A stretch of DNA of 64,000 nucleotides, taken from NCBI RefSeq assembly GCF_964204865.1, contig NC_135252.1:11863383-11927382 (forward strand), given 5' to 3'. Origin of the DNA: Styela clava (taxonomy: Eukaryota; Chordata; Ascidiacea; Stolidobranchia; Styelidae). How positions within the stretch are numbered: the first letter of the stretch is position 1; each line of letters opens with the position of its first letter. Under the pieces are notes generated by a model that saw nothing but the letters and a program-made list of their open reading frames with translations, was not told the DNA's origin and searched no databases. Positions 299 through 29,129 of this stretch are shown here, in pieces. The position numbers and the translations under genes were made by a program.

Positions 299-2537
299 CT
301 CAATTTGAAGAAGATCAACATCTATTTTTGACCCGACTAATTTCTTCACAGTGGGATTGTATGATTCGCAAGTTGATTCCGTGCAGTTTATTCTGCTTTT
401 GCATTCCCCAATGATGGCATCTCCAGTGACTGTCACTAAATAATTTATAATGATATTACATAATGTTATACAGTATATCTGGCTACAAATATTCTATCCA
501 AAAGTTTCTACTATATATACCTACTTTCGCACGTAAGAATATGTGGCCTAATAGAATGAATGAAACGATATCGTGTTAGTATAATAGCATTTCACTTATG
601 AACTACAACCATAAGTCAACCAAAACATTACTTTTTTGCTATTCGTAAGCAAACAATTTTTAGTGAATTACAAATAATATTAAATCAATGATTGAAAATG
701 CTCAATAGAGTGCTTTTTAGTGTTATACCCTAACGAACCCGCACGGTTACGCAACAAAGACGATGGCATTGATTCCTACTTATCACTCATCGCCATTATG
801 CAGCCATATTGAACCATTATTCACCAGTTTACTGCCGTGGACACTATTTTGCTTCTATAATGAATCTCCGCTCTAGAAGACCCTTATTCCCAGTCCCAGT
901 CGTTCTGTCTGTGTATCTGTGTGTCGAAGCTGTAGCGTCTTTATTTGAAATTTCCCATATTTTTTCGCGTTTCGTCGATAATTAGGATTGCTATTTCCGT
1001 TTCTATGGCAGCGACGCAATAACGCGTCGATCGTTAGTAAATTTTCAATTTTCTCACAAGTTTTCACCATTTTCGAAAATTCGTATTCCAAGAACGCTAC
1101 CCTCCGCAGGAGAAAATACTCTTTTTAACAAGACATTTTTTATCTCAATACTCCATAAACTGGAGAAGCCTTGGGAATTTTTATGAAAATGATTAATCGT
1201 TAGCCACAGTATGCCGCTCACTCAAGGATACCTATGAGACGCACAGCGCTCAAAACGAATTGGCAGTGTCGGTAACGCGCTCAATGTTATATAGGCTCTG
1301 TCCATCCTGGGTAGGCTTACCATACGTCCCGCTTTAGGCGGGACAGTCCCGCCTTTTTAGTGTCTTGTCCCGCCGTCCTGACAAGTCAGCTAAATGTCCT
1401 GCTTTTGCGTTCAGCCATCCAGCATAATACACGAACATGTTCTCGTTACTGTTGTTGCTGTGTAGCGCAACGCTAGCCTACTTACTGAAGGTGAATGCGT
1501 TATTTTGTTTGTTTCGTTGTTTCCCGCTAACATTGTTAGCGAAGTATCACATGTAAAATCAATTCTCATTGGTCCTTTCCGGACGTTCACGTGAATGTAA
1601 CATTGAGCAACGTCTTTTTGAAGGTTGTTATCTACAGAAAAGCATGCTTGGGTGAATAAGTAAATTCTCAATGCTTGGGAACGGCAGACTATCTCATTAT
1701 TCTTTATTCCTTTTGGCTTTTGCTGTACAAAAAAATCTAAATTCCGATCCTTTGTATCGTTAGCGTCTATTCCTTTATATTTTTCGAATCGAACCCGATA
1801 TTTAGACAGAGAATATGCGCATTAACTCTCGATGACAATATGGTCAATGAAGACAGCCGGGATGGCTTTAAATGTAGGTCTGTGTAGTAAAATCGGAAAC
1901 TGTAAAGTTACAGGATTACAGCTAAGGGGTCGTGTCCTTGGAGGCGTCCCGCTTTGAAGTCAAAAAAATATGGTAACCCTAATCTTTGGTACATACCGTC
2001 TTGTTATTGCATTGTGTTTTTCACGAAACAGCACGTTGACGCCATCATGAGAACATAAATCAATTTCAATTCCATTTTAGTAATATAGCGGACATGGACT
2101 CCATTTTATTTTATATCTATTGGTAGTGAACTTACATAGAGCATAACAAACAATCTTTTTCATACATGTTAACTTAGACACTCTTCATTGGTCTTCTACA
2201 GTCTTAGACGAGCAAATGTGCGAGTATCTTTGGGAATTCCACAATATGAATGACATTTAAGTTATCAACAACAGCGTTTGTAAACCAAATTAGATTATTT
2301 TAAAAACAAATACTCACTCAAGTTCCCTAATGGATAAGACAGAGATGCTTCTACTTGAAGACATACAGCATCCAATCCTAAAGCGGGACAGCACGTTTTC
2401 GTTGAGATTTCATCCAAGTTGAATAAACCCATAGCATCGACCCTGTACCCATGTTGACATCGTCTGGATTCCACGCTAACCACGCAATATACTAGTATGC
2501 TTGAAAGATGAAAAATTATTCTAAATCCCATAACCAT
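299..2537 (-). CDS. LU-type surface protein, 5' part (partial, possibly degenerate)
   Basis: Exon 1 is 2537..2318 and exon 2 begins at 435. Exon 1 encodes a hydrophobic signal peptide followed by RRCQHGYRV, a TCC and a DAVC. It ends at a good donor (A|GTGAGT) in phase 1. Exon 2 follows a TATTTAG acceptor and carries ECKSRINCTESTC, the C-x5-C-x4-C motif of the other array members. No acceptable GT donor is visible where exon 2 should end (about 299-320). The exon with the CC-x4-CN signature is not present in bases 1-298. The 1.9-kb intron 1 holds a hAT-type insertion. Either the gene continues beyond the left edge through an unusual splice site, or it is decaying. Function is unknown; a secreted or GPI-anchored three-finger-like protein is inferred from its neighbours. 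Confidence 0.6.
1312..1981. mobile_element. Degenerate hAT-type nonautonomous element in intron 1
   Basis: The ends form an imperfect terminal inverted repeat: TAGGCTTACCATA on the left, and TATGGTAACCCTA on the right (reverse complement TAGGGTTACCATA). CGTCCCG-rich subterminal sequence lies on both sides (GTCCCGCTTTAGGCGGGAC on the left, GGCGTCCCGCTTTGA on the right). The flanking octamers ATCCTGGG (1304-1311) and ATCTTTGG (1982-1989) agree at 6 of 8 positions, as expected for an old 8-bp hAT target duplication. No transposase coding is visible. Confidence 0.6.
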
Positions 2538-5280: not shown

Positions 5281-7412
5281 TTAATCAAATTTGAATTCCA
5301 TATACACTGACAACATTATAGCAATGAATATTGCAAATGACGGTGCAATTATTTTCGTCCCAGAAGTTGTAAGGTCAGGAGATTCTGCAATAAACAAATA
5401 ATATCTTAAAAAGTCGCAGGAAAAATGCAAATAGAATTTAAAAATCTCCTCCTATTCAATTATCTTTTTAGGAAGAATAGCCCTGCGTCTACTTTTTTTT
5501 AATTCACAAAGCAGTTCAGGGGGGATATACGGTTATTTACATTCCACTCCTTTTTGTTTGTTAACACTGTGTTGGACACGTACCGCGAGGATAAGTAAAT
5601 GAAACAAGAAAAAATGAACGAGTAAAATCACAAATATGTTTTACAAAATATAGCTTTCGTCAAAGATAGAATTTTTATCAATTTTTTCATGTCGTTAAAA
5701 AGCAGTGAAGTGCCAGGATTACCACATGGGAAGTCGACCCAAATATTATAAATAAAATTCATAGAAATAAACATCTGAGACTGGAAGGTTTGTTTTTAGA
5801 ATCCACACCATCTGCTTGATTGAATACACGCAAGAAAATTAAATTGATCCTTTGATCCTTAAAACGAATTTCAACTCCAAAAATTCATATATACTAATAA
5901 TTCACTTTTTCACTGATTTATTATTTACGTATTATTTACGATTTATGTATTATTTACCTGATGCCGTTACGACCGTGGTTTCCGGGCTATCATTCATAAT
6001 AACGCCATTGCAGCTGTTAGTGTCGCAGCATCGAACCTCGCACGATCTAAATTAAATCATGTATATTGTAACTCATTGCATCTATAGTTCAAAAATGCGC
6101 TTCTAACCAGACATAAAATGCTTTCGATTAACTCGTACCACGCCAATAGTGTTGAGGGTATATGTGCATGAATTGTCAATCGGGTCAGATTTTTTACATT
6201 GACACGGGATAAATAATTTGGGACTTGGATTGGGTGAACCTTTTACACATCTGGTTGAGACATATATATACTTGAATTGTACCGTACTCGATCGGTGCTC
6301 AATTTATGAATAACACTTGTATGAGTAAATTATTTTTTAAATGCAGCGGGATAATTTAGTAAGTAGGCCTGTGCACCCCAGTTTGATGTTTTCATGTCGA
6401 GTTGATTATTACCCTATACTGAATAAAAAAAACCAAAATACTTGATTGAATTTTGTATATATCATATGGAATCTACAATAAATATCAAAAGAGGCGCGTT
6501 AAAGTCTATATTACCGTTGGAGTAGTCCGCGAGTAAGAAACTTTGGCTTCCGAATCTGTTCAAGAATTTAGGGCAAAACGTTTTTTTTTTTTTCAGGTAA
6601 GGCGGAGCATCCTATGCAATACAATGTAACAATTCATCTAATATTGTGTGGTTTGTAAGACGAACTGGAATACAGCTTTGAATTAGTTACAAATGTTGAG
6701 ATCTTACTTTATCAGTACTTCATCTGCTTGGATACCTGATGCGTAGTTGAGTAGCGTGTCTTTGTAATCATCGCATGTTATTTCAGTGCAATTGCTACGA
6801 GGATGGCAATTCATATACACACCCTGTGCATCTTATAAAGAACACAATAAATATATATACAAGATCAGAAACAATTCAAATGTTCTGGTTTATTATTTAC
6901 ACCATTTGCCCAAAAATATAAAAAAGAAAGTTTGACTCGTATTAAAGATAGAAAGCAATAGAAAATCACAATCTATATATATCCATTAATAACAGGTATA
7001 GTTACTTGTTTATTATCACATAATAAGTTAATAATTTGTTAATCAGAAAATAGCACTTTGATCTTGAATAACAGTGGAGCATTTTCATTTTTGAACTGAA
7101 TTCCATCAGTCCTTCAAAGTTATGCTAGGTCGCAATGTTAAATATATGATAATTTTCAGAGGGGCGTTTTCGCTATCAATTCGCTTTATGGAACTTACCT
7201 TTTATTACGTTCAATGATATCACTACCTCCATTCGGAAACATACAGGATCTAGCGTCATCCATGTCGTGCAATTTTCGACGACTGTACTTCTGTTTTCTG
7301 ATATGTCCGGAATTGTTAGTTCATAACCCAGTTCACATTCAATACCTTGTACAGGATTGAAATCGGGACAGCTAACAAACATATACAATATTAGGAGATC
7401 AAGTCGAGGCAT
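5281..7412 (-). CDS. LU-type (three-finger-like) GPI-anchored surface protein, 176 aa
   Basis: Four exons: 7412..7199, 6831..6708, 6046..5958 and 5384..5281, all with GT-AG borders and phases 1, 2, 1. The lengths sum to 531 nt (176 codons plus stop). A signal peptide (about residues 1-22) precedes ECELGYEL, ENCTTW and DPVCFRME. Exon 2 gives NCHPRSNCTEITC. Exon 3 gives SCEVRCCDTNSCN, with the CC-x4-CN closing motif of Ly6/uPAR domains. Exon 4 has TTSGT followed by a hydrophobic tail (IIAPSFAIFIAIML), which looks like a GPI-attachment signal with a small-residue omega site. The N-terminal C-x2-C pair of classical LU domains is absent and two other cysteines are added. This supports an extracellular GPI-anchored protein; ligand and role are unknown. 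Confidence 0.87.
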
Positions 7413-8070
7413 TGCAAGTCAGGATTCTATACTTTATAAAGCTATTTTCATTGACAATATTACCATAAAATTACTGAGGATATATATGAAGTCACTCTGA
7501 AAAAAGTGAAGACAGAGTATTTGATGTTAAATTCTTCTTTATTTTGAACTAATCCTCTACTCAACAGTGTAGGAAATTCCCTTTTTAGATAAAATATTAT
7601 GTAGATCTACTCATCTAAAAATTATATAAAAAAAGAATAAAAATAAAGGGAGAAAATCAGAGAACGATGCCCAAATATGTAGACACGAAGACTAAAACAA
7701 AGTTGTACGGGTATGCTATCTGTCACCGTAGACTATCTGTAATACCTGACCACCGAATTGCTACGCGAAGGCGATACAACGTTCGCAATTTTTTATTTTA
7801 ATGACGTCAACGCTCACAAACAAACGAATTTCTTAGAGCCCATGGGAACTTTTGGAATCAATAGAAATAATAGACTTCCAGCGAAAGTGCAATCGTACTT
7901 TATAGGGCAGAATTTAACTGATGAAAATTACGGTAAAGTGGTGTATTCCCTACTCAAACTTATCTCGCCAAGTTCCATACTACTGACAATCAATAAAATC
8001 CCAATCATCTTTGAATGATCAAAACCTAAGATGATATTTTGCAGACGGAATTATACAAGATACAAAAAAC

Positions 8071-8180
8071 GGACCTCCAGAAGTATGTCCACCAAGATGG
8101 CGCACAACCTAAACATAGTAGATGTTCCCGGTTAGGGTTCAGGTTGTGCGCCATCTTGGTGCACATACTTCGGGAGCGCC
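8071..8180. mobile_element. Short MITE, GGNNCTCC-GAAGTATG family (110 bp)
   Basis: The two arms are near-perfect inverted repeats beginning GGACCTCCAGAAGTATG and ending CATACTTCGGGAGCGCC, with CCAAGATGGCGCAC inside each arm. Flanking octamers CAAAAAAC (8063-8070) and CAAAAAAT (8181-8188) match at 7 of 8 positions. The equivalent site in duplication unit 2 (about 14,735) is empty, so the insertion probably post-dates the duplication. Confidence 0.8.
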
Positions 8181-8782
8181 CAAAAAATTATGATATGAGC
8201 GATTCGACAACAAAGATAAATGTAAAATGCAGACATTATTTGTGTACAAACCACCATCGTTCAACAAGAATTTCCTTTAATAATCCTGGAATGCCTCATT
8301 CTGCGCTATCTTACTCATTCTTCGGGTTATGTACATTTTCCGTCTTGTGAAAGCCATTAAATGATTTTTATCTGTTTGTTTAATTTTTATATCGTACTGA
8401 ATCACCTAATAATCAATTTCCTTCCGGAGTATGGGTTTCAAAGAGTGTGCTTTACCGTTTAAACAAAGAGCAATTCAGTGTTGTTAATTTTGACTATCGG
8501 TTGTTGCCGTGGTGTTGCTGGGTAAACAGAACATCTTTCGATTTCTGTCATTGTAGTATGATTGCTTTTTTCAAAAATAGATTTCTGAAAAGAATATAAT
8601 GCATCATATTTCTTCATGTTAAAATACCCACGAACACACAATGAAACAAAATTCTTTGAACATATGTTGTTTATTCTGTTTATACGGGGCGTTTACCACA
8701 ATGAAAAGTGCAAATACTGTCTTCCAGATCATTATTTAATCTAAAGTATTTGGTACCTTTTTGAATACAACAAGGTGGAGAG

Positions 8783-9018
8783 GGTGCTCCCGAAGTATGC
8801 GAACCAAGATGGCGGACATCGGAACGTAACATGGGTAACAGGTTAGGGTTAGGCGATAAATTTTTTCCAATTTTCCTTATTTTAGTCCTTTAATCAGTTC
8901 GAAGACTAGCCAAGAGCCTCCCGTAGTATTTATACCTAAATTTATGGCCTAACCCTAACCTAGTACACATATTACATTCCGATGTCCGCCATCTTGGTTC
9001 GCATACTTCGGGAGCCCC
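8783..9018. mobile_element. Longer MITE of the same family (236 bp)
   Basis: Terminal inverted repeats GGTGCTCCCGAAGTATGC and GCATACTTCGGGAGCCCC enclose CCAAGATGGCGGACATC arms and a core related to TTAGGGTTAGG. A perfect 8-bp target duplication, GTGGAGAG, flanks it (8775-8782 and 9019-9026). The paralogous site near 15,346 in unit 2 reads straight through without the element. The 8-bp duplication points to hAT-type mobilisation. Confidence 0.88.
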
Positions 9019-9187
9019 GTGGAGAGACTTGTTTTTATTGCGGCAACGAACAAAAAACCCTGAATTACAAAGGATTTGTAAACGGAACAAGTTACGATCT
9101 CATTTATTAATACTTCATGATACCATGTTCGGAATAAATTTCAAAAGATAACAATACAGACAACCACAAATATATCTTCGGGTAGCG

Positions 9188-9250
9188 CCAATGTATAAAG
9201 AACAAAGGAAGATGAAATTATATCAAGTCGAGGCATTGCAAGTCAGGATA
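9188..9250 (-). pseudogene. Chimeric relic of LU gene exon 4 joined to another gene's exon 1 start
   Basis: Bases 9188-9223 resemble the last coding part of exon 4 of the LU gene at 9888-11715 (CCAATGTATAAAGAACAAAG, then GATGAAATTATAT). Without a break this continues into CAAGTCGAGGCATTGCAAGT, the start of exon 1 of the gene at 5281-7412. No intact frame remains. It looks like a breakpoint from unequal exchange between array members. Confidence 0.6.
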
Positions 9251-9887
9251 TTATGCCTTAGAAAACTGTATTCATTGACAATATTATTATAAAATTACTA
9301 AGTTTTTCATCGGTTTGTTCAAGTTTTATATCGTACTGAATCATTAATCATCAATTTCATTTCGTTTATGAGCATATGGAATGATGATGCATATGAGTAT
9401 AACTTGAACAATAAAATACAAATTTTGTGCCGATATCATTAAAAATGCGCCCACAAAGCCGAGTTTATTGATAGTGGTGAAATGTTTCGTATGTGTGTCC
9501 GCAGTTATCTGTGTGTTCAGTATCCATTCGTTTTTGTTTATGACCTCATTACCGATCAGTCAGTCGACCGCAAGCTATTTTGAAGATTTTAGTCGATCGC
9601 GGTCAAAGCAGGTTGGCCACCCCTGATTTAGATCATACAATTCAGATTTGTGACCTGCCTAGTTTTTAGTCGTAAGTGTTGAAATTTCATCTTGCTAAGT
9701 GTTATCTAAACTGCAAAAAAATAAATATTCTCAAACCATGATTGTAAAATTTGAACAATAACCATTTGCTAGACTAAGTATGATCTGCAAATAGAATATG
9801 TCTTTCATAACTAAAGATGTAGACGGGGTTTACACAATTATTCTCGCTCTTTGCATAAGTGAGATACGTCAATGAATGTTTCAAAAC

Positions 9888-11715
9888 TTAGCATATTAAG
9901 CAAAGTAGAGCCAATATATAGAGAACAAAGGAAGATGAAATTATATCAGTGCCGGATGTTGTTTGTTCCTGTCCAGCCGTTGGTGTCGAAATCGGCGTTT
10001 CTGTAACAAATAACTTCGATTATTTATAAGATACTGTTGTAAAATTTTCAATGACGAGAAACTTACTTGATGCATCCTCTATTACGCTAAAGGAACCTTC
10101 AGTAGAAAACTTTGCAGCGTCGGTTGTCTCTAAAGCTTTAGTTGTAAGTACCACAGGTCCGAGTAGATCCATCATGTTAATGTAATCTTCATTGCATTTG
10201 TTGGTGTTGCAGCATCCAACAGAGCACGTTCTATCATCAGAAAATGCAAATCATTATGTAAAACCTGCGTAAAGCTATTTACATATTAGATATCTCGTCT
10301 ATCAGAATCTCCCTCGTGTCTTCTGCCAACTGCGCCCTAGTTCGCTTATGCATTTTTACCTTGATTGCCACCTAGCTTCCGATATTTATCAGCTTTTACT
10401 CTTACAGTTTAATAGACTGTAGATTATTGACGCATTTCATGATAGTCGCTTAAATTGAGGGTAAATCATAAGTAAGTTTGATACATGCTCGATGCTCATC
10501 AGAGTTCACACATCAGAGCAATTTTATTTGGTAATAATAACCCTTGTATGAGAGAAAGAGATTTATTTTTTTTGTCAACCGAAATAAAATACCAGTCATC
10601 GTAATAATAATAAGTAATAAATTAGTTTGGTATAGACAGGAGGGAGTGATACGACCAAACGGTCATCGAAGTCATCTTCCCCGTGGAAGCCGAAGGTACT
10701 TTATACTCATAACACTGTTAGATATAAGGTTATATGTTTATTATTGCGAAAAGGTTCTCACGTGATGTCAATGTCTGAAATACTACTGCCAAAGCTCGAC
10801 GCTTGCAATTCTTGGAGTATTAGTTTTTTATATTGGCCGCAAGTTTGTTCAGTGCAGTTGATACGAGGGTGACATCCACTATACATGGCCTCTCCACCTG
10901 AAAAAATATTAAGTACCTATCATATTTTTAATAGGCGAGCGTGGGATTTGATTGTACAATAAAGTGAATGTATCATGAATATTCAAAGCGATTTTTGATT
11001 CATTCTTAAAAATATAGCTCAAACCAATATGTTTCTCTACTCAGTCCATAGTACAGGACACAACGGCAAGGAGTCAAATGGACCGCTATCAGCATATATA
11101 TCATAGGTAATTTATTCAAACCAAACCGCTATTTTGCTATTGGGTAGATAAAACAGAAGCGACATTTAACATATAATGAGAACTATAAAGCAACAACACA
11201 AAATAGTAAATTGGTAATGAGTAACGTCGAGTGAAAGCTGGATAAATGGGCTTCGACGGGAATACATGTAGGATGGTACATGATAAGCCAGTTTCGTGGA
11301 ATGAGTTTGGTAAAAGTTCTGATTTTGTTGACACAGTCCTGTTGTAAGTGGACTTATGAATAACTACATAATAAAAAGAGCAATCAAGTTCCTCAGTACC
11401 ACAGGTCCTCTATAGTCATCTGTTATTACACGACTATGCTGCTCCAAGTGAAGCAACAACTGATTTTACTGAACAACTTAACTTACTGATTGTGAACCCG
11501 TGATATGAAATACTGGCGGTTGATTCAATCCGAAAACACACAGGATTCGAGGTTGTCCACTCTGTGCAGTTCCCTGTGGTTATACTCGTCAGACCACTTA
11601 CAAGTGACGAAGTAGATGTTACTTCATATCCTTGTTGGCACTCTATACAATTGACCACGGTCATCTCAAAAAGCAATATCGATGCGAAAACCGACTTCCA
11701 GTATTGCCTCGACAT
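9888..11715 (-). CDS. LU-type GPI-anchored surface protein, duplicate copy 1, 213 aa
   Basis: Four exons: 11715..11487, 10897..10762, 10230..10067 and 10000..9888, with GT-AG borders and phases 1, 2, 1. The total is 642 nt. A signal peptide (MSRQYWKSVF plus a hydrophobic core) leads to ECQQGYEV, GNCTEW and PVCFRIE. Exon 2 gives GCHPRINCTEQTC. Exon 3 gives TCSVGCCNTNKCNED followed by a Ser/Thr/Ala-rich stalk. Exon 4 encodes TTSGT then a hydrophobic tail ending LALLCLIC, a probable GPI signal. Ten cysteines sit in the array's own spacing. The copy at 15748-17439 is about 94% identical in protein. Intron 2 carries a block absent from that copy. The role is unknown; extracellular and membrane-anchored is inferred. 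Confidence 0.9.
10547..10690. repeat. Interspersed repeat block in intron 2, absent from the paralogue
   Basis: The stretch AGATTTATTTTTTTTGTCAA through GGTATAGACAGGAGGGAGTG and CGACCAAACGGTCATC has a relative at about 32,425-32,545 (GAGATTTATTTTGTCAACC and GGTATAGACTGGGGAGCGAT). The matching intron in copy 2 jumps from TTATATGA straight to AGGGTACGAT near 16,400. It is either a transposed element that arrived after duplication, or a deletion in copy 2. Confidence 0.55.
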
Positions 11716-11995
11716 TTTAGTTATATATAACGAGTCTTACATGTAAAATAATCTGAAAACCTGGTTGTAAAGTAATTATTTGTAAAACTTCGTTAAAACT
11801 GATACCTGGATGGCTGCATCCTGATAAACCATCTCATTCTTTCGATGTTTTTCATTTGCGTAAGTTAGTAAACATATTATTGATCAGAATTATTTCCCAG
11901 TGATTATCATACGACTTAAAATATATGTGAAGACATGGAGGAAGGCTGAGTTGACATTGTCAGATCTCATTAGTTATTGCATGTTTCCAATATAC

Positions 11996-13370
11996 CAGTG
12001 GTGGCCAACCTGCTTCCAACCGCGAGCGACCGAAATCTTCAAAATAGCTCGCGCTCGACTGATAGGTAATAACGTCATACACAAAAACGAGTGAGTACTG
12101 GATATGCGGTTAACTGCACACAGGCATACAAAAAAATCCACCGCTACCAGAAAATTGCCACAAAATTTGTCCTTTTTTGTGTCCCATTTGATTTGTCAAC
12201 TTGATTAAGTGTAAGTGTTTCATCATTTATTTAAGAATTATTTAGAATTTAGATCATACACTTCTGATCTGGGGCCTGCCTAATATTTAGTCGTAAGTGT
12301 TGAAAATTGATCAAAACAACTTGCCAAATATTATCTACACAGCGGGAAATAAATATTCTCAATTCATAAATGTTCTGTACTAAATAACTGTTCAAACATT
12401 AGCATCTAATTTACAATTTCTTTCAAGTCCGATTCTTTACTCACTTGGAATTAGAATATTTACGCTACCGCTACCATTGCGAATAAAATAGAGTAAAACA
12501 AAAACTTCCGCATACTGCGAAAGTTATTGGAGGATCGTTTTTCAGTCAAGGCACACGATATTCGACACGTTGGTTTCTAAACCTTGGCAGTGAGAAACTT
12601 GCATTTGTTACATGCTGTTAGATTTGATCTCACACATTTCGCCACTTATATTTCTTTATTATCTTACCAATTCCAGACAAACAATGTTCTATCTTTATTA
12701 TTTCATGTTTATAGTGACTCATTATTGCGCCAAAGTGAAGATATAAAACGCAAGATAACGCGCTTCTGATTCTTTTTTCTATGCGATATACCAGGGGTGG
12801 CTGACACGTCGATCGTCACTTCTCGAGCAGTCGATCGCGTCTGATGTTGAGTGAATTTTATTGAAATATCACCAAAAATTTCCTCGAACCAGTTGTGTGT
12901 TTTACAACAGAAAAAATACAGTACTTTACATGCACAAAATACAATATACACATACAATATTTGAGTCTGGGCAATCCCGATAAAGAATATTATTACGTAA
13001 CAAATGCAAGTTTTTTCCGCTGCCAAGGTTTAGAATGAAGTGCCGAATATCGCGTGTCTAGACTGACAAACAATCCTACAATAACTTCCACAGTATGTGA
13101 AAGTTATTGTCTCACTCTAAGAGTAGTGGGATAAATTTTATTCGCAATGGTAGCAGTGGCATCAAAATGCCCAATTTGTTCTAATTCTGAGCAAGTGAAG
13201 AATCGCGTTTAGAGGAAATTGTATATTAGATACTGAAGTTTGCGCAGTCATGTAACATTCAAGGCAAGGTTTCTTGAAGAATTTTCAACACCACTGAAAA
13301 TTAGGCACGTTCTTCATCTGAATTGTATGATTTAAATAAATCTTAAATAAATGATGTGCTACTGAATACT
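11996..13370. repeat. hAT-type relics forming an inverted pair
   Basis: CAGTGGTGGCCAACCTGCTT at 11,996 is a typical hAT-style terminus. Its counterpart in opposite orientation ends at about 9630 (GGTTGGCCACCCCTG), and a further copy starts at about 17,724. A second terminus, CAGGGGTGGCTGACACG, begins at 12,792. Bases 12,990-13,350 are roughly the reverse complement of 12,240-12,620; both hold AACCTTGGCAG and the AACTTGCATTTGTTAC string. The second arm is missing in unit 2, so it was probably added after duplication. Confidence 0.6.
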
Positions 13371-14010: not shown

Positions 14011-15747
14011 TTATGCCTCATAAGGCACAACTATTTTCATTGACAATATTATCATAAAATTACCAAGTATATTTATGAAGTCACTCTGAAAAATGTTAAG
14101 ACAGAGTATTTTCTATGAAATTCTTTCTCATTTTCAAACAATCATCGACTCATCAGTGTAAGAAAAGTCCTATTCTAAAGAAAATACCATGCAGATCTAA
14201 TCAACTACAAATTATATAAGAAAAAATATGAGAGCGATGCTCAAATATAAAAAAATAAAAGTAATAGCCTTCTAGCGGGAAATACAATCTTAACCATTGA
14301 AATTTCGAAGCAATTGGTTCAGTATAGGTAATGAAAAAAGCGATTTTTTTTTCGTAACAACCAAAAAAAGAAAAGAAAATTCTAAAAACGACAAATATCA
14401 AAACGATCTTTATGTCAATTTCGTGTCCGAAGATGACAACTGATTTTTCGTTACGTAGGCAGTAACGCTATGATCACACAGAACTGACATTCTCTAACAA
14501 AAGCTCTATTGTTCAATTTTAGTAGGTCTTTATAATATAACGAGGTACTGTGAGTTAATTAGTGCAATCGTAGTTCCGGATATGATTGATAAAAATAACA
14601 GAAAAGTAGTGTATATATTTCATTTTTAAACTTTTCTCACCAAGCTTCCGTACTAATATATATGCTAAATCCCAATGCTAATATCAATAAAATTCCAATC
14701 ATCTTTGAATGATATTTTGCCAGTAGAAATCATACAAGATACAGAAAATGATTGAAAATGAACGGTTTGACAATAGAAGTAATTGCAAAATGCAAGTAAT
14801 ATCTGTCAACAAACCACCATCGTTAAACGAGAATTTCAATTAATTATCTTGAAATCCTTCATTCTTGGCAGCTTTCCTCATTCTTCGTGGTATGTACATT
14901 TTCACCTTGTGAAAACCATTAAATGTTTTTCATTTGTTTGTTTGAATTTTATATCGTACTGAATCATTTTTATATTATTATTATATAATCAATTTTATTT
15001 CGTTTCTGTGCATATGTGTTTTGAAAAGTGTGCTTCATCGTTTTGAACAAAGAGCAATTCAGGGTTGTTGAATTTGACTATTTGATGTTACCGTAGTGTC
15101 GCACTTATAAGTAAAATGTATCTCTCTCGATTTCAGCCATTGTAGTATGATTGCTTTTCCAAAAATAGCTTTGTAAAAAGCTAAAAAATGAAGCATCAGA
15201 TTTCCTAATGTGAAGATACACAAGAACACACAATGAAACAGAATTTCCTAAAAAAATTTGTTGTTTATTACGTCCACAATCAATGATGTAAATATTCCAG
15301 ATCATAATTTTACCCTCACGTGTTTGGTACCTTTCTGAACACAACAAGGTGGATATAAATCTGTTTTATTAGGGCAACAAAGTTTAATGCTAAATTACAA
15401 GGACTTCGCCAACGGAACTAGTTACGATCCCGTTCAATATTACTGTACTTTACAGTACCATGTTCGGAATAAATTTTAAAAAGTAGCGACACAGATAATC
15501 AGATATATATATATCTTTGAGTATCAATGATGTAATACGTTGCGTATAGTCTACTGATCTGATGAAGCTTTGATGTTAGATTGTTGGTTAGTCATAAAGG
15601 ATTGCGCATCCACACATTGTCTTTATAAAAATTTGAATAGAATAATATGTCTTTCATAACTCATGCTTAACGAAAGATGTGGACGAGGTTTATACAATTA
15701 ATCTCTTTCTTTACATGAGTGAGATACATCAATGAATGTTTCAAAAC

Positions 15748-17439
15748 TTAGCATATTGAGCAAAGTAGAGCCAATATATAAGGAACGAAGGAAGATGAAA
15801 TTATATAAGTGCCGGATGTTGTTTGTTCCTGTCCAGCCGTTGGTGTCGAAATCGGCGTTTCTGTAACAAATGACTTTGATTATTTATAAGATACTGTTGT
15901 AAAATTTTCAATGACGAGAGACTTACTTGATGCATCCTCTGCTACGCTGAAGGTACCTCCAGTAGAAAACTTTGAAGCGTCAGTTGTCTCTAAAGCTGTA
16001 GTTGTAAGTACCACAGGTCCGAGTAGATCCATCATGTTAATGTTGTCTTCATTGCATTTGTTGGTGTTGCAGCATCCAACAGAGCACGTTCTATTATCAG
16101 AAAATGCAATTTATTAGGTAAAACCTGCGTAAATTCATTTACATATTAGATATCTCGTCCATCAGAATCTCCATCGCGTCTTCTGCCAACTGCGCCCTAG
16201 TTCGCTCATGCATTTTTACCTTGATTGCCACCTAGCTTCCGATATTTATTAGCATTTACTCTTACAGTTTAATAGACTGTAAATTATTGACGAATTTCAT
16301 GATAGTCATATAAATTGAGGATTAATCATTAGTAAGTTTGATACATGCTCATAAGGGTTCACACATCAGAACAATTTTATTTGGTAATAATTACCCTTAT
16401 ATGAAGGGTACGATATACTCATAACACTGTTAGATATAATGTTATATATATGTTTATTATTGCGAAAAGGTTCTCACGTGATGTCAATGTCTGAAATACT
16501 ACTGCCAACGCTCGACGCTTGCAATTCTTGAAGTATTAGTTTTTTATATTGGCCGCAAGTTTGTTCAGTGCAGTTGATACGAGGGTGACATCCACTATAC
16601 ATGGCCTCTCCACCTGAAAAAATATTAAGTACCTATCATATTTTTAATAGGCGAGCGTAGGATTTGATTGTACAATAAAGTGAATGTATCATGAATATTC
16701 AAAGCGATTTTTGATTCATTCTTAAAAATATAGCTCAAACCAATATGTTTCTCTACTCAGTCCATAGTAGCCTACAGGACACAACGGCAAGGAGTCAAAT
16801 GGACCGCTATCAGCATATATATCATATGTAATTTATTCAAACCAACCCGCTATTTTGCTATTGGGTAGATAACACAGAAGCGACATTTAACATATAATGA
16901 GAACTATAAAGCAACAACACAAAATAGTAAACTGGTAATGAGTAACGTCGAGTGAAAGCTGGATAAATGGGCTTCAACGGGAATACATGTAGAATGGTAC
17001 ATGATAAGCCAGTTTCGTGGAATGAGTTTGGTAAGAGTTCTGATTTTGTTGACACAGTCCTGTTGTAAGTGGACTTATGAATAACTACATAATAAAAAGA
17101 GCAATCAAGTTCCTCAGTACCACAGGTCCTCTATAGTCATCTGTTATTACACGACTATGCTGCTCCAAGTGAAGCAACAACTGATTTTACTGAACAACTT
17201 AACTTACTGATTGTGAACCCGTTATATGAGATACTGGCAGTTGATTCAATCCGAAAACACACAGGATTCGAGGTTGTCCACTCTGTGCAGTTTCCTGTGG
17301 TTATACTTCTCAGACCACTTACAAGTGACGAAGTAGTTGTTACTTCATATCCTTGTTGGCACTCTATACAATTGACCACGGTCATCTCAAAAAGCAATAT
17401 AGATGCGAAAACCGATTTCCAGTATTGTCTCGCTATCAT
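15748..17439 (-). CDS. LU-type GPI-anchored surface protein, duplicate copy 2, 214 aa
   Basis: Four exons: 17439..17208, 16613..16478, 16090..15927 and 15860..15748, with phases 1, 2, 1 and 645 nt in total. The protein is nearly the same as that of 9888-11715, with one extra residue near the start (MIARQYWKSVF). All ten cysteines are kept: ECQQGY, GNCTEW, PVCFRIE, GCHPRINCTEQTC and CSVGCCNTNKCNED. Exon 3 differs by about ten bases, of which I count seven as amino-acid changing and three as silent, mostly in the stalk. The hydrophobic tail is retained with three changes. Both copies look intact and are probably expressed, although only the frame shows this. Confidence 0.9.
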
Positions 17440-18789
17440 AGTTATATATATATATAACAAGTCTCACATGTAAAACAATCTAAAACCTAGTTGTAAGGTA
17501 ATTATTTGTAAAATTTCGATAAAACTGATACCTGGATGGCTGCACCCTAATAAACCACCGCATTCTTCAGATTTTTCCCATTTGCGAAAGCTATTAAACA
17601 TATTATAAATCAGAATTAGTTTCTAGTGATCATCACACGACTTAGGAAAACATATCTGACGACATGAGGGAAGGCTGAGTCGATCTTGTCAGATATCATT
17701 AGTCATTGCACGTTTCCCATATACCAAGGGTGGCCAACCCGCTTCCAACCGCGAACGACTGAAAAGTTCCGACTTATCAGTATTAACGTCATACACAGAA
17801 ACGAATGAGTACTGAATATGCAGTTAACTGCACAAACGCATACACAAAATTCCACCACCACCAATATACTCGGCATTCTTAATAAAATCGCCACAAAATT
17901 TGTATTTTTCATGCTCCATTTTACATTGACAAAAAAATTTTTTTCCCGGCCCCAAATGTTCTATGACTGTTCAAACATCGGTATATAATTTACAATTTCC
18001 TTCAAGTCCGATTTTTTTACTCGCCTGGAATTATATACGCTACCGCCACCGTTGCAAATAAAATAGAGTGTGACCAAAACATTCGCGTACCGCAGAAGTT
18101 ATTGAAGGATCGCTTTTCAGTCAAGTCACACGATATTCGACACGTTGGTTTCTAAACCTTGCTAGCGTGAGAACTTGCATTTGTTAATTCTTACGTGATG
18201 TTCGATTTGCCCTCGCACGCCTCATACATTTAGCCACTTATATTTCTCTATCATCTTACCAATCCCAGACAAATTATGTTCTATCTTCATTACTGTTTTA
18301 TTTCATGTTTATAGTGACTCATTATTGCGCCATAGTAAAGACTTAGGGAGTAAAACTTTTCGCCCTGGTTTTGAGATAACGTGCTTCTTATCCTTTTTTC
18401 TCTGCGATATACTATACTAGTATAGACTATTAGTTAATGAATTTTATTATCATTCTTTAATTCCATCTTTCTGCATAATTAAGGAGTACTTGAGCACTGT
18501 AGAAAATATACCTCGAACAATCGGATATGAGCAATACGATTTCGGATGTGATGTTATGCGTTTGCTATACCCACAACAATCAGAGTTCACAAATGATCTC
18601 GATGTTGTTATTGTTACTCTCTGCGTTGTGACTTTACCACACATACCATATTTTGATAAGATTTAAGCTTCCAAGTAAATTTTGATGATCTCGTTGAACC
18701 TGTGATTCAACACCACCGTTAGCTGAAGCTTATCTTGACAAAGTAAGCAATATCACAGTAAGATCTAATTCGGTATTACATTGAAAAAC

Positions 18790-19121: not shown

Positions 19122-19131
19122 ATGATTATGG

Positions 19132-20445: not shown

Positions 20446-22284
20446 TTACTTTTCAATATTATTCAATACAATCAGACGTAACAAATAATACGTAAGAATG
20501 TGTGCAAGCAGTCGAGTTTGCATAAACACTGAATGGCCATTAGATGTCGTTGCAATATCAGTGGGTGTTGTGGTCTGTTCATTAGTCATACTGGCAATTG
20601 TTGCATTGTTGCAGCTGTCCGTTGAACAACATTCATATTCGCAACTTCTAAAAATAAAAAAAACAGCAGAACCAAAATGAATGGGGTTATTTTGTTATTA
20701 CTGTTTATGTTGATGTTTAGCATATAGTCAAAAATATGCATACACAGACAAGTCATTTACGTATAGTATAGAGCCAGGCAAATATACATGTACAATCAAC
20801 TTAATATACATGTACAGCCATTTAAGTGATGTACATACACATAAAATGACATTCGCATATATATTTGATTTAATGTGATGTACAGTCATCCAAGTAATGA
20901 ACGTATACACAGAAAATGTCATACGCACATAGAGCCAACTCAATAAACATATACATCCATTTAAATGGTGTACCGTGCACATATAAAATTCAATGTCATA
21001 TACATGTACAACCAACTTAAAATGCATTAATGATGTGCATACAAACGATAACGTCATATGCACTTTTGTGTAAAAGTAGATTGCAACCTCCTTTACGTAT
21101 TCATCTACAACGTTCGTCAAATTGGTATGCATCGTTATGCGCAACTACGTACAGACGTGCCACTGATGCTTGTTTCATAGCAATTTAGTACATCTACTTT
21201 ACACTACACTTGGTATGATAATTTCTAATATTTCGATCAAAAGCCGTTCTGGAGTTTCTGTGAACGTTTTAACGCACTCATTGCGACCGATCATCTGCAA
21301 TGGGATGATATGACTTCTGAGATTACGACTTCCCATATATATCTATAAATCAGCTGCTACAAGCTGAATCATTATGAACATAACATGTAAATGCAAACGT
21401 TTTAATATACAATATACATAGAGTGCATGCATATGACAGGTTGCCGGGGTTGGATGTATTTGTATATCACCTAAATGGCTGTATATGTAAATTTGGTTTG
21501 CTGTATATGCTAACTGTCTTAAAGATGGGAATGACAACAAGTGATATCGCATATTTCGTATGCATTCGACTATACATATAATAGTTTTTAAAAATTTGAA
21601 TGTAATACTGCAAGATCTGGAAGAAACTTCAGTAAAATTGTATACAAATTGGGAATTTGGAGGAAATATTCGTTACGTTCAAATTTTTTTCTGTTTATAA
21701 ATCCTTACTTGACTATATAAGATCCAAGTAGGTTAGATCCAATTTGTTCAGTAATAACCTCAGGCGCATAAGATGTACAATTTACCGTGTCGCAGAAAGC
21801 TGTTGTAGAGCAATTTGCAAATGCTACCTTCAAGTCAGGAATCGAACTTACTGTGGAAATACCTAGAAGAATTATAAAACAGTGCACTAGCTGAAATCCA
21901 AAGATAAACCAGGTGAATATATCAGCTCGTCAAAATTAAAATTATACAAGAAAATTTAAAATAATCACGTTGGGTGAAATATATTGTGAAGGCAATGACA
22001 AATAGATGCCAGATAGATTCCGCTACGGATAGATTTCTATATAATAACCGGATGCGTATCAGTGACTGCTTGATTGAAGACTTGTTCGGAATGAAAACGA
22101 CTCACCAAAATAACAGTCGGTATAGTGCTTTACCTGCTACAGCCTCTATTCGTAAGCATGTTACATCATCTTCTTGTCCACAGTCAATTTCTAGTATAGT
22201 TGGAGAAGTAGATAAACATTTCAACGAGTGAATTACGCGAAAGAAACATAAAATGACAATGAAAATAATTTTCCCAAATAGCAT
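20446..22284 (-). CDS. LU-type surface protein, 168 aa
   Basis: Three exons: 22284..22134, 21862..21709 and 20647..20446, with GT-AG borders and phases 1 and 2. The total is 507 nt. The signal peptide (MLFGKIIFIVILCFF) is followed by LKCLSTS, EIDCGQ and VTCLRIE. Exon 2 gives ANCSTTAFCDTVNCTSY. Exon 3 gives SCEYECCSTDSCNN, then a short Thr-rich stalk and a moderately hydrophobic end (LLAHILTYYLLRLIVL) before NNIEK. The tail is less typical for GPI attachment because charged residues follow it. A fourth exon, as in the genes to the left, is not needed. Intron 2 holds a degenerate minisatellite. Function unknown. Confidence 0.82.
20740..21165. repeat. Degenerate minisatellite in intron 2
   Basis: Variants of ATACATGTACA, CATTTAAGTGATGTACAT, ACACATAAAATGACAT and CCAACTTAAT recur many times with irregular spacing. 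The 138-codon open minus frame here is a by-product of this low-complexity repeat. Confidence 0.6.
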
Positions 22285-24343: not shown

Positions 24344-25271
24344 CTACAGAACTAGCAACAACAAAATAGAGTACAGAGGGTAAAACAAGCTTGGTGACTT
24401 GAACATCGAACCGCTTCCTGACGTGGTGAGTTCTTCTCTTCCATCTGATGTGGTGAGTTCTTCTCCTTCATCTGATGTGGTGAGTTCTTCTCCTCCATTT
24501 GATGTGTTGAGTTCTTCTCCGTCATCTGGTGCGGTGAGTTCTTCTACTCCATCTGGTGTGGTGAGTTCTTCTACTCCATCTGATGTGGTAGGATTCGCGT
24601 TTTCAACAACAGGTTTAGTTTTGGTTTCATCTGTCACGTCACTGACCACAACAACTGTACCTGGAGTTGATTCAGAAATTGGTGTCGTACTTTCCATAGA
24701 AACGCTGTTGCAATTGTCTGTAGAGCAGCACGAAAATGTACAATTTCTAAAACAAAGAAAAATTTATTTGTAGTAGTAGTATATTGTAATAACAAATGTT
24801 CGTAAATAAGAGATTTGATCTTACTCAATAACAACACCCGGAAATATTTTTGCAGATTGATCTTTTGCATATTCTTTGCATTTCATCTCGTCACACTGTG
24901 TTTTCGTAGAGCAAGAATCAAACGTCCTATATTGTGTCCCACCCCCTTAAAAATAAAGTCTTCCGTTAGCACTTTTCAGCTTACAATTAAGTATCTTTGG
25001 AGTATTTAGACCAGCGCCTCTCTCAAACCTAATCATACCTTGTTTGGCAACTTTGTTGAAGAAAAACTTTTGAAGCAGCAAAAATAAGTAAAAAACCCTT
25101 ACCTAATGAGATTACTACGTCCATGTGTAAACAAGTTGTAGTGGTGCTCGAACAAAGGGTTTCTTGCGGGTTGCTCGTCAGAGAGGTAACAGCGCATTTC
25201 AGCGAACTGCCTTTCTCAGAAAGTATGAAGATCGCTAGCAAAGCAATTTGTCCACGCAGCATTTTAACCAT
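24344..25271 (-). CDS. LU-type GPI-anchored protein with acidic repeat stalk, 230 aa
   Basis: Three exons: 25271..25103, 24945..24825 and 24746..24344, with phases 1 and 2 and 693 nt in total. An alternative start lies nine bases downstream (25,262). Signal peptide, then LKCAVTS, ETLCSS and TTCLHMD. Exon 2 gives DSCSTKTQCDEMKCKEY. Exon 3 gives NCTFSCCSTDNCNS. The stalk that follows contains about six 9-residue repeats of the type DGVEELTTP. It ends in SGSGS and a hydrophobic tail finishing ILLLLVL, a good GPI-signal candidate. The stalk is acidic and Thr-rich, so O-glycosylation is likely. Function unknown; an exposed cell-surface protein is inferred. Confidence 0.88.
24419..24590 (-). repeat. 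27-bp tandem repeat coding the stalk
   Basis: On the plus strand the unit reads GATGTGGTGAGTTCTTCTCC followed by a variable TCCATCT, about six times. It encodes nine residues ending in EEL-T-T/S. Sequence differences between units are mostly in the first two and last two residues. Confidence 0.85.
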
Positions 25272-26839: not shown

Positions 26840-27005
26840 TGATGACGTTCTTGCACAAAAAAATGAATCCACTAGATCCCACAGTATTTTTTAAAATTAA
26901 TAACAGAAATAGTCTTCTAGCGAAAATGGAATTTTCAACCACTGCAACTTTGAAGTAATTGGTCCGGTAGCTAATGAGAAAAGCGATTTTTCCACAAAAA
27001 GACGA
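26840..27005 (-). repeat. Dispersed AT-rich repeat family, copy
   Basis: The minus-strand core reads roughly GGACCAATTACTTCAAAGTT, then CAGTGGTTGAAAAT and CGCTAGAAGACTATTTC, then AAATACTGTGGGATC. Related copies are at about 14,215-14,360, 28,740-28,860, 34,380-34,560, 37,985-38,060, 42,580-42,660, 60,090-60,220 and, more weakly, 7780-7930. No coding is visible. Confidence 0.6.
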
Positions 27006-27261
27006 TAAAATAATTACTTACAAGAACAACAACATATTACCAAAGCCATTCATGTGTACATTTTGTGTCCAATAATTCGACATAAACGTGACACCATAGA
27101 AATGTGATTAATACTGTATTAAAAGAGACAGAGCGTGAAAGGAGACAATAATACATTAGGTATACAAAGTTTATATTTTAATAAACAAAACAAAAAAGTA
27201 AAAACGTTTTTTTTGGTCTGAGCAGTTAGAATAATTAATTCCAAAAATCCTTTATAACTTT

Positions 27262-27267
27262 TTTATT
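27262..27267 (-). terminator. Poly(A) signal AATAAA
   Basis: Minus-strand AATAAA about 40 bases downstream of the stop of the gene at 27306-29129. Confidence 0.5.
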
Positions 27268-27305
27268 CATATGAACTGTGAGTATACAAGTAAGGTAAAC
27301 GTAAT

Positions 27306-29129
27306 TTACGAGAAAACATTTAGAATCAGCGAGATACAAAATAAAATTGGTATCCCAACATTTGACTGCACAATAAAAGTTGTAGAACCAGAAGATGTTG
27401 TTGACATTTTGTATTTATCTGTAACTACGTTTTGAATTGAAAATTTGTTTGTGATACTTTCGCTCGAACTATCCGTTGAATTCGATGTTTCCATTGTTGT
27501 TATCAATATCGAAACCCTTGGCATATTTTCCGTAACTATGAAAGCATCATCAAATGGTGGAGAATCCCCGGAAGATTTTGACTTTTGATTTGCAGCCTTT
27601 GTGAACACGGGTGATTCATATATAGTTTTGTCGGTTTGTACAGAAAGTGCAGAGATGGGTATTGAGGCGGTACTTAAAAACTCGTTTAAAGTAGTTTGAA
27701 CATTTGTGATTGTAGAATCAGTTGTGCGATTTACCTCGTCAGTATTGAAACTTTGACTCACAGTTAGATTACATGTCCCCGAGATTGTCAGTATCGGCAA
27801 TGTTGATAGTGATGTCACAGACGATTGTTTGGTCGGTTTCGTTACAGTTGTTGGGAGAATTTTCGGCTTCTCCGTTTTTGGTAAAACCGTAGTAGTTATA
27901 GGGAAGTTAGTTGAGTGGATTCTATTTGAAAGAAAAGGCGTAGACGTCTTGGGGTTTTGTAGCTTACCCGTGCCCCTGGTAGAAGGTGTAGTTTGAATTG
28001 TTCGTGGTGGCCTGGTAGTTCTGGGTTTGAAGCTACCATTTTTTGTTCTTCCCTTTCCAGTGGCGCCATTTGAATTGCAATTATCTTCCTCGCAACATGC
28101 GATTTTGCAATTCCTGTTATAAATGTAGTTCATACAACCAATAAAGATATTGTTTTTCCTGTTTATAAGAAAAGTTACATACTCCTACGCATCTACCTAG
28201 TATAAAAAAAATTATTTCGAGTTGACATAGATAGCAATGAATGTCTACACGAGTCTATAGCGCAAATGACTCATGCTTGAGCCTGTTGAAATTTTAGAAA
28301 GTTGATTTTCCACTTCATTACTTAGCACGTTGCACCACGTTATATATTCGAGCCTGAACGTTAGGTAATTACCATTACATATTTCTTACTTTGAAGCACT
28401 CAAGACTTGAGGACTTGAGGCTCGGAATCTTGCTCCCATCGACGATTTTATGAATTCTTTAGATGTCGCACATGTCAATCTAGAACATCTTACTCGTGCA
28501 GAACACGCGTAATATATAGCTTTTCCGGAACCTACATTAAAACAAAGAATTAACAAGAAACGGATGCTCAAATATATGGACACGAAAGCCAAAACAAAGA
28601 AGTACGGGTATGCAATCTGTCACATGCAATCTGAGTAGACCACAGGCACCGCAATCTTCACGGATCACGACTAACGCGGACGCGTCACAAAGTGCGCAAT
28701 TTTCGATGACGTCCTTGAACAGCAAAACAGATTATATGGAGCCCACAGAATTTTTAAAATAAATAAAAGTAAAATCTTCTAGCGAAAAATACAATCTTCA
28801 ACTAATGAAAAGTTCAAAGCAATTAGTCAGTAGTAGATGAGAAAAGCGATCAAATACAATACTATCGATTAAATACAATATCGATGATAAATTACCCACT
28901 TTCGCAGTTCAGATATTTTAACGAAATTATATAGAAACTCACCTTCAACCGTGGAGGTAATCTTCATACACGCAGGACGTGGTATTGATACGGGACATTT
29001 TTTCAATTTTTGCGTTTTTATTGTGACTGGTGAGTTACTGGATATCGACTCGTACCCCACCTGGCATTTTAGGCCGGCAGTCCACTTGACTGCAATGCAC
29101 GCAAGCAGAATGCGATACAGAAATTGCAT
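27306..29129 (-). CDS. LU-type surface protein with long Ser/Thr-rich stalk, 378 aa
   Basis: Three exons: 29129..28943, 28531..28390 and 28113..27306, with phases 1 and 2 and 1137 nt in total. Signal peptide (MQFLYRILLACIAV), then LKCQVGYES, LKKCPVS and PACMKIT. Exon 2 gives YACSARVRCSRLTC. Exon 3 gives NCKIACCEEDNCNSNG. It then runs on for about 250 residues of Ser/Thr/Pro-rich, mucin-like stalk (for example TTRPPRTIQTTPSTRG). A hydrophobic end, VGIPILFCISLILNVFS, is probably a GPI signal. It is the longest member of the array, and all the extra length is stalk. Intron 1 contains a copy of the dispersed repeat. Function unknown. Confidence 0.88.

What the first reader, a model, noticed from the sequence alone, without database searches (positions are those of the whole stretch)
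299..29129. Seven-gene array of LU-like surface proteins with a re-wired cysteine pattern
Seen: all members share C...C...C in exon 1, C-x5-C-x4-C in exon 2 and C-x3-CC-x4-C-N in exon 3, with identical intron phases (1 then 2). Established: classical Ly6/uPAR domains have an N-terminal C-x2-C pair and end in CC-x4-CN. Here the N-terminal pair is missing, while one extra cysteine appears in each of the second and third exons. Inference: a lineage-specific three-finger family with a moved disulfide, expanded in tandem. This may be the undescribed system of the window.
Basis: partly seen in the sequence, partly recalled or inferred. Interest (0 to 1): 0.82.

Follow-up and report, generated by a model that had tools for sequence, protein, structure and literature searches.

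The report
Tunicate array of Ly6-like surface proteins
A row of six apparently intact gene copies and one decaying copy encodes small, probably membrane-anchored proteins of the Ly6/uPAR "three-finger" kind; their odd cysteine layout combines two known changes and recurs at other places in the same genome, so this is a lineage-specific branch of a familiar family and not a new system.

Summary
Seven minus-strand copies lie where stated. Six are complete, with GT-AG introns in phases 1 then 2 and ten ectodomain cysteines, C..C..C | C-x5-C-x4-C | C-x3-CC-x4-CN. The seventh (G) has exon 3 outside the window, no good exon-2 donor and CC-x5-CA; it looks decayed.

The extra loop-3 pair is not private: human Lypd6 has C-x5-C-x4-C with a solved loop-3 bond, and ACVR2/BMPR2 lost bond 2-3 and gained a loop-3 bond. 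The same exon-2/3 frame recurs in this genome: 36 copies in two C5 strings (11 of them without C7 and C8) and one exon on C6. A profile of 34 C5 domains scores six of six C3 proteins above 200 cysteine-fixed shuffles each, A only just. A phase-2 intron in loop 3 appears private.

Best reading: GPI-anchored single-LU surface proteins with bonds 1-5, 4-6, 7-8, x-y, 9-10. Fold, bonds, anchor and function are inferred; no structure was predicted.

The parts
28943..29129 (-). Gene A exon 1: signal peptide, loop 1, first half of loop 2 (C1, C4, C5)
   Evidence: donor GAAG|GTGAGT, phase 1
28390..28531 (-). Gene A exon 2: C6-x5-C7-x4-Cx
   Evidence: AG acceptor, GTAAGA donor, phase 2
27306..28113 (-). 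Gene A exon 3: Cy-x3-C8C9-x4-C10-N, then 255 residues rich in S/T/P with a hydrophobic end
25103..25271 (-). Gene B exon 1
24825..24945 (-). Gene B exon 2
24344..24746 (-). Gene B exon 3 with repetitive stalk and hydrophobic end
22134..22284 (-). Gene C exon 1
21709..21850 (-). Gene C exon 2
20446..20647 (-). Gene C exon 3 with hydrophobic end
17208..17439 (-). Gene D exon 1
16478..16613 (-). Gene D exon 2
15927..16090 (-). Gene D exon 3 (end of LU domain and stalk)
15748..15860 (-). Gene D exon 4 (stalk and hydrophobic GPI-type tail; intron phase 1)
11487..11715 (-). Gene E exon 1
10762..10897 (-). Gene E exon 2
10067..10230 (-). Gene E exon 3
9888..10000 (-). Gene E exon 4
   Evidence: end corrected
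7199..7412 (-). Gene F exon 1
6708..6831 (-). Gene F exon 2
5958..6046 (-). Gene F exon 3
5281..5384 (-). Gene F exon 4 with hydrophobic tail
2318..2537 (-). Copy G exon 1 (one extra Cys)
298..429 (-). Copy G exon 2; its end is not defined because no good GT donor is seen. Exon 3 lies outside the window at -283..-403 (L003 9717-9597)
9795..12149 (.). Tandem duplicate of 15644-17863 (genes E and D) in two blocks, 90.8% and 91.9% identical

Best explanation
The array encodes single-domain Ly6/uPAR (LU, three-finger) proteins that go to the cell surface on a GPI-type anchor behind a stalk of variable length. Shown by sequence: a hydrophobic N-terminal segment, one LU-like ectodomain, and 50-255 residues after it (26-40% S, T and P, hydrophobic end included) in six of six complete genes; tandem duplication; purifying selection on signal plus ectodomain of the youngest pair. 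Inferred: disulfides 1-5, 4-6, 7-8 and 9-10 as in LU domains, bond 2-3 lost, plus a loop-3 staple x-y as in Lypd6. Inferred: the family is a local branch of an LU subfamily spread over this genome, marked by one private phase-2 intron. Inferred and least certain: loops bind protein partners at the surface, and the copies differ in partner and in height above the membrane, most likely in surface recognition or adhesion.
For: Gene models, phases and Cys spacing. Hydrophobic ends and stalks. D versus E: dN/dS 0.31 overall; 0.13 in signal plus ectodomain (8 silent, 4 replacing changes); 0.65 in the tail (5 silent, 10 replacing). A profile of 34 C5 domains scores six of six C3 proteins above all 200 Cys-fixed shuffles each, 17.7-39.0 bits (A only 17.7 against a shuffle maximum of 17.2); the reverse profile scores 9 of 9 sampled C5 domains (of 34) above all 200 shuffles. 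In 36 exon-b copies of the C5 loci C7 and C8 are both present in 25, both absent in 11, singly absent in 0, as expected if they pair; the nine of these 11 that entered the tree form one clade, so it counts as one event. Models named u-PAR/Ly-6, Lypd6, QVR, CD59 or activin receptor are reached at E up to 1 by at least nine of 24 family members and by none of 24 Cys-fixed shuffles; one C5 domain passes the Activin_recp cut-off, 21.0 against 20.9 bits. Profile-profile alignment to Lypd6 covers 62 columns and beats 60 of 60 column-permuted decoys. Lypd6 bonds.
Against: No window protein passes any Pfam cut-off; its best single hit is DUF7773 (gene B, E 0.004), and unrelated models (MANEC, Kp4) score as well as LU ones. 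Profile searches of PDB sequences found nothing at E up to 10; a single-sequence search gave a weak three-finger hit (bucandin, E 0.34) behind an unrelated one. The C3 profile alone does not clearly exceed shuffles for any of six references: LYPD6 135, LYPD6B 18, ACVR2A 45, ACVR2B 192, BMPR2 23, CD59 67 of 200 as high, nor for the own-genome Lypd6-like, QVR-like and canonical exons (112, 321 and 490 of 500). In the profile-profile test type II receptors and CD59 also beat all 60 decoys, though over only 10 and 11 columns, and the Lypd6 alignment is off by one at C5. No transcript, structure or localisation data. B and C do not group firmly with A, D, E, F.
Confidence: 0.62

Rival explanations
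1. The array is a GPI-anchored offshoot of type II activin/BMP receptor ectodomains and acts as a decoy or co-receptor for TGF-beta ligands.
For: Same set of lost and gained bonds in ACVR2/BMPR2; similar long loop 1 (C-x19-C-x9-C in ACVR2A/B; C-x21-23-C-x9-C in D, E, F); BMPR2 scores above 200 of 200 shuffles with the C5 profile; Activin_recp is among the Pfam models reached, once over the cut-off, by a C5 domain.
Against: Loop-3 spacing fits Lypd6 better than ACVR2/BMPR2, whose last three Cys before x4-CN are adjacent; ACVR2A and ACVR2B do not exceed shuffles with the C5 profile (53 and 50 of 200 as high) and none of the three does with the C3 profile (45, 192 and 23 of 200); profile alignment to type II receptors covers only the last 10 columns.
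Confidence: 0.1
2. The proteins are CD59-like guards against complement or other pore formers on the animal's own cells.
For: Small GPI-type LU proteins in tandem; general similarity of build to CD59; the CD59 Pfam model is reached weakly by gene B (E 0.19) and by one C5 domain (E 0.47).
Against: Bond 2-3 of CD59 absent, extra loop-3 pair present; CD59 does not stand out with either profile (16 and 67 of 200 shuffles as high); profile alignment limited to 11 columns; six copies with very different stalks are not needed for that role.
Confidence: 0.1
3. A family of modulators of acetylcholine receptors or Wnt signalling, as Lypd6 and Lynx.
For: Longest profile alignment is to Lypd6, for which both actions are reported (PMC8494132, start of abstract seen in a search listing).
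Against: This genome has separate Lypd6-like and QVR-like exons, so that role may be filled; the C3 profile does not lift Lypd6 above shuffles; tandem expansion and variable stalks would be unusual.
Confidence: 0.15
4. Not LU at all: another small cysteine-rich fold that shares CC-x4-CN by convergence.
For: No match over a cut-off for any window protein; no PDB profile match.
Against: LU-type models in the family scan but not in shuffles; joint loss of C7 and C8; an intron between C5 and C6 as in the classical LU gene (compare); homology to C5 domains, one of which passes an activin-receptor cut-off by 0.1 bit.
Confidence: 0.08

Closest known systems
Lypd6 / Lypd6b (UPAR_LY6_2, PF16975)
   Same: C-x5-C-x4-C, then CC-x4-CN, with a solved extra bond in loop 3 (Cys61-Cys72); GPI anchor; single LU domain
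   Different: Lypd6 keeps bond 2-3 (Cys6-Cys15) and has C-x2-CC where the array has C-x3-CC; no window protein matches PF16975
Type II activin/BMP receptor ectodomains (ACVR2A/B, BMPR2)
   Same: Bond 2-3 lost, loop-3 bond gained, ten Cys, long loop 1
   Different: Extra Cys directly before CC; receptor kinases (recalled); no support from the C3 profile
QVR (quiver) u-PAR/Ly-6-like domain, PF17064
   Same: Own-genome member has an extra Cys pair in loop 3 and CC-x4-CN; weak hits by four of 24 family members
   Different: Keeps C-x2-C; that member is one exon with 12 Cys
Snake three-finger toxins other than the basal type
   Same: Bond 2-3 lost (PMC6600238, passages)
   Different: Secreted, no loop-3 pair (recalled); compared by description only
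Human Ly6 clusters (8q24, 19q13 and others)
   Same: Clusters of LU genes with an intron at the tip of loop 2
   Different: Typically a separate signal exon and one intron inside the LU domain; here signal and first half share an exon and a second, phase-2 intron cuts loop 3

Membership tests
Ly6/uPAR (LU) domain | CC-x4-CN at the C-terminus of the domain | tested here: met
   six of six complete copies; copy G reads CC-x5-CA
Ly6/uPAR (LU) domain | Ten plesiotypic Cys with bonds 1-5, 2-3, 4-6, 7-8, 9-10 | tested here: not met
   C2 and C3 absent in six of six; eight plesiotypic Cys remain. The review treats loss of 2-3 as frequent within the family, so this fails the strict consensus, not the superfamily
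Ly6/uPAR (LU) domain | Match to a curated model of the LU superfamily | tested here: inconclusive
   no window protein over any cut-off; one of 24 family members scanned, a C5 domain, passes Activin_recp by 0.1 bit
Ly6/uPAR (LU) domain | Intron at the tip of loop 2; LU exons flanked by phase-1 introns | tested here: inconclusive
   an intron between C5 and C6 in six of six (phase 1) and a phase-1 intron after the LU domain in D, E, F only; no intron between signal peptide and LU domain
Ly6/uPAR (LU) domain | Three-finger fold | not testable with these tools
   Structure prediction takes only proteins that the DNA gives letter for letter, and these are spliced; no job was sent
Lypd6 family | Extra Cys pair in loop 3 at C-x5-C-x4-C and just before CC | tested here: met
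   C-x5-C-x4-C identical; C-x3-CC against C-x2-CC
Lypd6 family | Bond 2-3 retained and Lypd6 model matched | tested here: not met
   no C2/C3; no window protein matches PF16975
Type II activin/BMP receptor | Ectodomain homology plus membrane-spanning kinase | tested here: not met
   genes end in a hydrophobic tail without a kinase; no support with the C3 profile
GPI-anchored protein | N-terminal signal and C-terminal hydrophobic end with little or nothing after it | tested here: inconclusive
   hydropathy fits in six of six, but F has 11 and C 5 residues after the best 12-residue segment; no anchor predictor or experiment

The most novel reading that the evidence does not exclude
In this lineage the loop-3 staple x-y became the mainstay of LU domains and set other bonds free: 2-3 was lost across the subfamily, and in one series of C5 domains the otherwise near-essential 7-8 bond was lost as a pair while x-y stayed. 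The C3 array would be the single-domain arm of this alternative LU architecture, used in long LU-string surface proteins and in an anchored array with its own intron.
Probability: 0.35. Interest if true: 0.58.

Novelty: new variant of a known kind. Interest (0 to 1): 0.38.

Why it matters
LU proteins do much recognition, fertilisation and receptor-modulating work in vertebrates, while the review used here (PMC6600238) does not contain the words tunicate, ascidian or Ciona. A subfamily in a probable tunicate with a fixed alternative disulfide set shows how far the three-finger scaffold tolerates loss of ancestral bonds. The review states that removing bond 7-8 from single-domain LU proteins gives unstable, aggregated product; the C5 domains without C7 and C8 but with x-y offer a natural test of what compensates.

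Tried and rejected
Considered and rejected: (1) the loop-3 Cys as a novelty of the array - rejected by Lypd6, ACVR2/BMPR2, the own QVR-like gene and the C5/C6 loci. (2) C5 as a row of two-domain genes with the 7-8-less domain at the N-terminus, as in uPAR: dropped, because about 240 bases separate one pair from the next in one young stretch and no signal or anchor exon was seen by eye in five intervals translated; one or a few long LU strings are as likely. (3) C18:1978306 and C18:2849667 as relatives: their letters show no LU frame. C3:17251341, also listed, was not looked at. (4) PF00021 hits on C2 and C13 are canonical C-x2-C exons; the C13 one was tested and does not match this frame.

Led nowhere: PDB profile searches; literature on tunicate LU proteins: paper searches listed no paper on them by title or abstract start; the listings are capped (20 of 152, 20 of 893, 12 of 72), and of those papers only passages of PMC6337849, PMC7407461 and PMC11595613 were read. 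PMC3737499, which holds the words tunicate and Ciona once each, was not opened. Rfam and tRNA scans of the window gave nothing.

Rows dropped and limits of controls: 3 of 29 [CF]C-x4-CN hits at C5 as out of context (23848917, 23861085, 23873799); 1 of 24 rows an overlapping duplicate; 2 of 36 exon-b copies without a usable exon a; 4 of 34 automatic exon-a pairings replaced by hand. Phase 1 was imposed when C5 domains were joined by script, so those joins are no evidence of phase; one C5 stretch was read by eye. The exon-a pattern allowed no Cys soon after C1, so a canonical exon a would have been missed; in the 25 exon-a contexts no Cys stands three before C1. The exon-b pattern requires Cx and Cy, so their retention there is by construction, while C7 and C8 were left free; three of the 25 copies with both were read. 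For the C5:21 Mb and C6 copies unbroken exon b is by construction or by how they were found.
Full report
What is there. Seven gene copies lie on the minus strand between 29129 and 298. Six (A 29129-27306, B 25271-24344, C 22284-20446, D 17439-15748, E 11715-9888, F 7412-5281) give complete open spliced frames with GT-AG introns: phase 1 after exon 1 and phase 2 after exon 2 in six of six, and a further phase-1 intron before a tail exon in D, E and F. Each ectodomain has ten Cys. The spacing C-x5-C-x4-C and C-x3-CC-x4-CN is identical in six of six, while loops 1 and 2 vary. The C-terminal motif is beyond chance: 6 hits, all in these genes, against 0 in 100 simulations.

The seventh copy. Copy G has exon 1 at 2537-2318 and exon 2 from 429 down. 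The own genome is held (window = G000:C3:11863383-11927382). In the flank, exon 3 was found by eye at window -283 to -403, with an AG acceptor in phase 2, but it reads C-x3-CC-x5-CA, and where exon 2 should end there is no GTRAG donor, only a weak GTCAAA further in. G is most simply a decaying copy. A motif scan of the 60 kb further left shows no other member.

Are the genes real? D and E are a young tandem pair, 90.8% and 91.9% identical over two blocks. Changes in signal plus ectodomain are mostly silent (8 silent, 4 replacing; dN/dS 0.13), the tail is looser (5 and 10; 0.65), overall 0.31. This fits two protein-coding copies under purifying selection and supports the exon joins, though it rests on one pair and 27 changes. 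Six of six have a hydrophobic N-terminus and, after CN, 50 to 255 residues with 26-40% S, T and P that end in a hydrophobic stretch. A GPI anchor is likely but was not tested.

Are they LU domains? No window protein passes a Pfam cut-off. The weak hits are in part u-PAR/Ly-6, CD59, QVR and activin receptor models (and ET, of the same kind by recollection) and in part others (DUF7773 for B with the best E, 0.004; MANEC; Kp4). PDB profile searches gave nothing. The case became stronger through relatives in the same genome. A protein search with D hit C5 near 23.84 and 23.86 Mb weakly (E 0.07 and 1.0), one with B hit C5 near 21.09 and 21.11 Mb (E 0.08 and 0.05), and one with a C5 exon hit both regions strongly or moderately and C6 weakly (E 0.13). 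Reading the DNA gives 26 exon-b copies at C5:23.83-23.87 Mb, ten at C5:21.08-21.11 Mb and one at C6. All have Cx and Cy; of C6 only exon b was seen. A profile of 34 joined C5 domains scores all six C3 proteins at 17.7 to 39.0 bits, above all of 200 Cys-fixed shuffles each (A narrowly), and the reverse profile scores 9 of 9 sampled C5 domains above all shuffles, so the kinship goes beyond the Cys. Models of the LU kind are reached by at least nine of 24 family members at E up to 1 and by none of 24 shuffles; one C5 domain just passes Activin_recp (21.0 against 20.9 bits). Profile-profile alignment with Lypd6 runs over 62 columns, with the Cys in register except C5, which is off by one; with type II receptors and CD59 only the last 10 and 11 columns align. 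All three references beat 60 of 60 decoys, so the decoys do not choose between them. Results against: with the C5 profile LYPD6 and LYPD6B are reached by 4 and 5 of 200 shuffles, CD59 by 16, ACVR2A and ACVR2B by 53 and 50, only BMPR2 by none; with the C3 profile none of the six clearly exceeds its shuffles; nor do the own-genome Lypd6-like, QVR-like or canonical exons with that profile.

Which bonds? By register the eight Cys other than x and y are C1 and C4-C10 of the LU consensus. In 36 exon-b copies of C5, 25 have both C7 and C8, 11 have neither (R, K or Q at C7 and F at C8), none has one only. This is what pairing of C7 with C8 predicts, and it leaves Cx and Cy as the remaining pair. The nine 7-8-less domains that entered the tree form one clade (95/90), so it counts as one event.

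Known or new? Human Lypd6 has bonds 3-31, 24-50, 56-75, 76-81, 6-15 and 61-72 (PMC7582953, passages), hence the same C-x5-C-x4-C and a loop-3 bond between the equivalent Cys. The review PMC6600238 (sections 4, 17 and 18 and passages) says that bond 2-3 is often deleted, and that BMPR2 and ACVR2 lost 2-3 and gained a bond in loop 3, resembling Lypd6. So each element, and their combination, is known. The own genome also has a QVR-like single-exon gene with 12 Cys (C-x2-C kept, loop-3 pair present, over the QVR cut-off) and a Lypd6-like exon below its cut-off. I therefore read the frame as an old 12-Cys LU type minus bond 2-3; this order of events is inference, since the link to Lypd6 and QVR is weak by sequence.

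What is private to the array. The intron between C5 and C6 is the classical LU intron. The phase-2 intron just before Cy is not: at C5:23.83-23.87 Mb all 26 exons kept after removing three out-of-context hits run unbroken from C6 to C10. Shared by A-F, with a phase-2 acceptor also in G, it points to one origin of the array, although the protein tree does not resolve B and C with the rest. Other species could not be searched.

Organism. A GH6 domain match over the cut-off exists in this 376.6 Mb genome; GH6 joined to cellulose synthase as a tunicate trait is recalled, not tested.

How it probably works. Anchored LU heads on stalks of unequal length, with free loop tips, suit binding of partners at the cell surface. 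Which partner is unknown; recognition or adhesion is my first guess (about 0.35), Lypd6-like receptor modulation next, decoy receptor or complement guard less likely. No expression data bear on it.

Verdict. A lineage-specific branch of the LU superfamily with a known kind of disulfide change and an intron that appears private. The C5 domains without bond 7-8 are the more unusual find.

Noticed in passing
own genome G000:C5:23830064-23869341 (L022-L026), minus strand: 26 LU exon-b copies in a string, mostly alternating domains without C7/C8 (F at C8) and domains with both; short spacers without visible signal or anchor exons suggest one or a few very long multi-LU genes.
   Followed up: partly
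own genome G000:C5:21084894-21108142 (L038-L041), plus strand: A second LU string of ten domains in two similar blocks, matching copies about 16-18 kb apart, all ten with C7 and C8.
   Followed up: partly
L047 (own genome C9:6669671-6669928): QVR-like LU domain with 12 Cys in a single open frame of 197 residues, over the QVR cut-off.
   Followed up: partly
L046 (own genome C3:290339-290497): Lypd6-like exon with C-x5-C and C-x2-CC-x4-CN; 25.8 bits against a cut-off of 31.5.
   Followed up: partly
window 39643-52157, minus strand: Probable proprotein convertase gene of furin/PC5 type: two Peptidase_S8 exons over the cut-off and Cys-rich repeats (one weak Furin-like_2 hit below its cut-off). An ORF at 40221-39643 with a membrane-spanning stretch, without a Pfam hit, may be its last exon.
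   Followed up: partly
window 31736-32078 and 33838-34177: Inverted repeat, 93.6% identical, perhaps mobile-element remains.
   Followed up: no
window 8783-9014 and 55558-55793; 8075-8196 and 54461-54581: Dispersed repeat copies 75-80% alike, the first pair inverted, lying between and outside the LU genes.
   Followed up: no
window 24344-24746: Stalk of gene B is a run of degenerate repeats of about eight or nine residues (EELTTSDG type), likely to vary in length.
   Followed up: no
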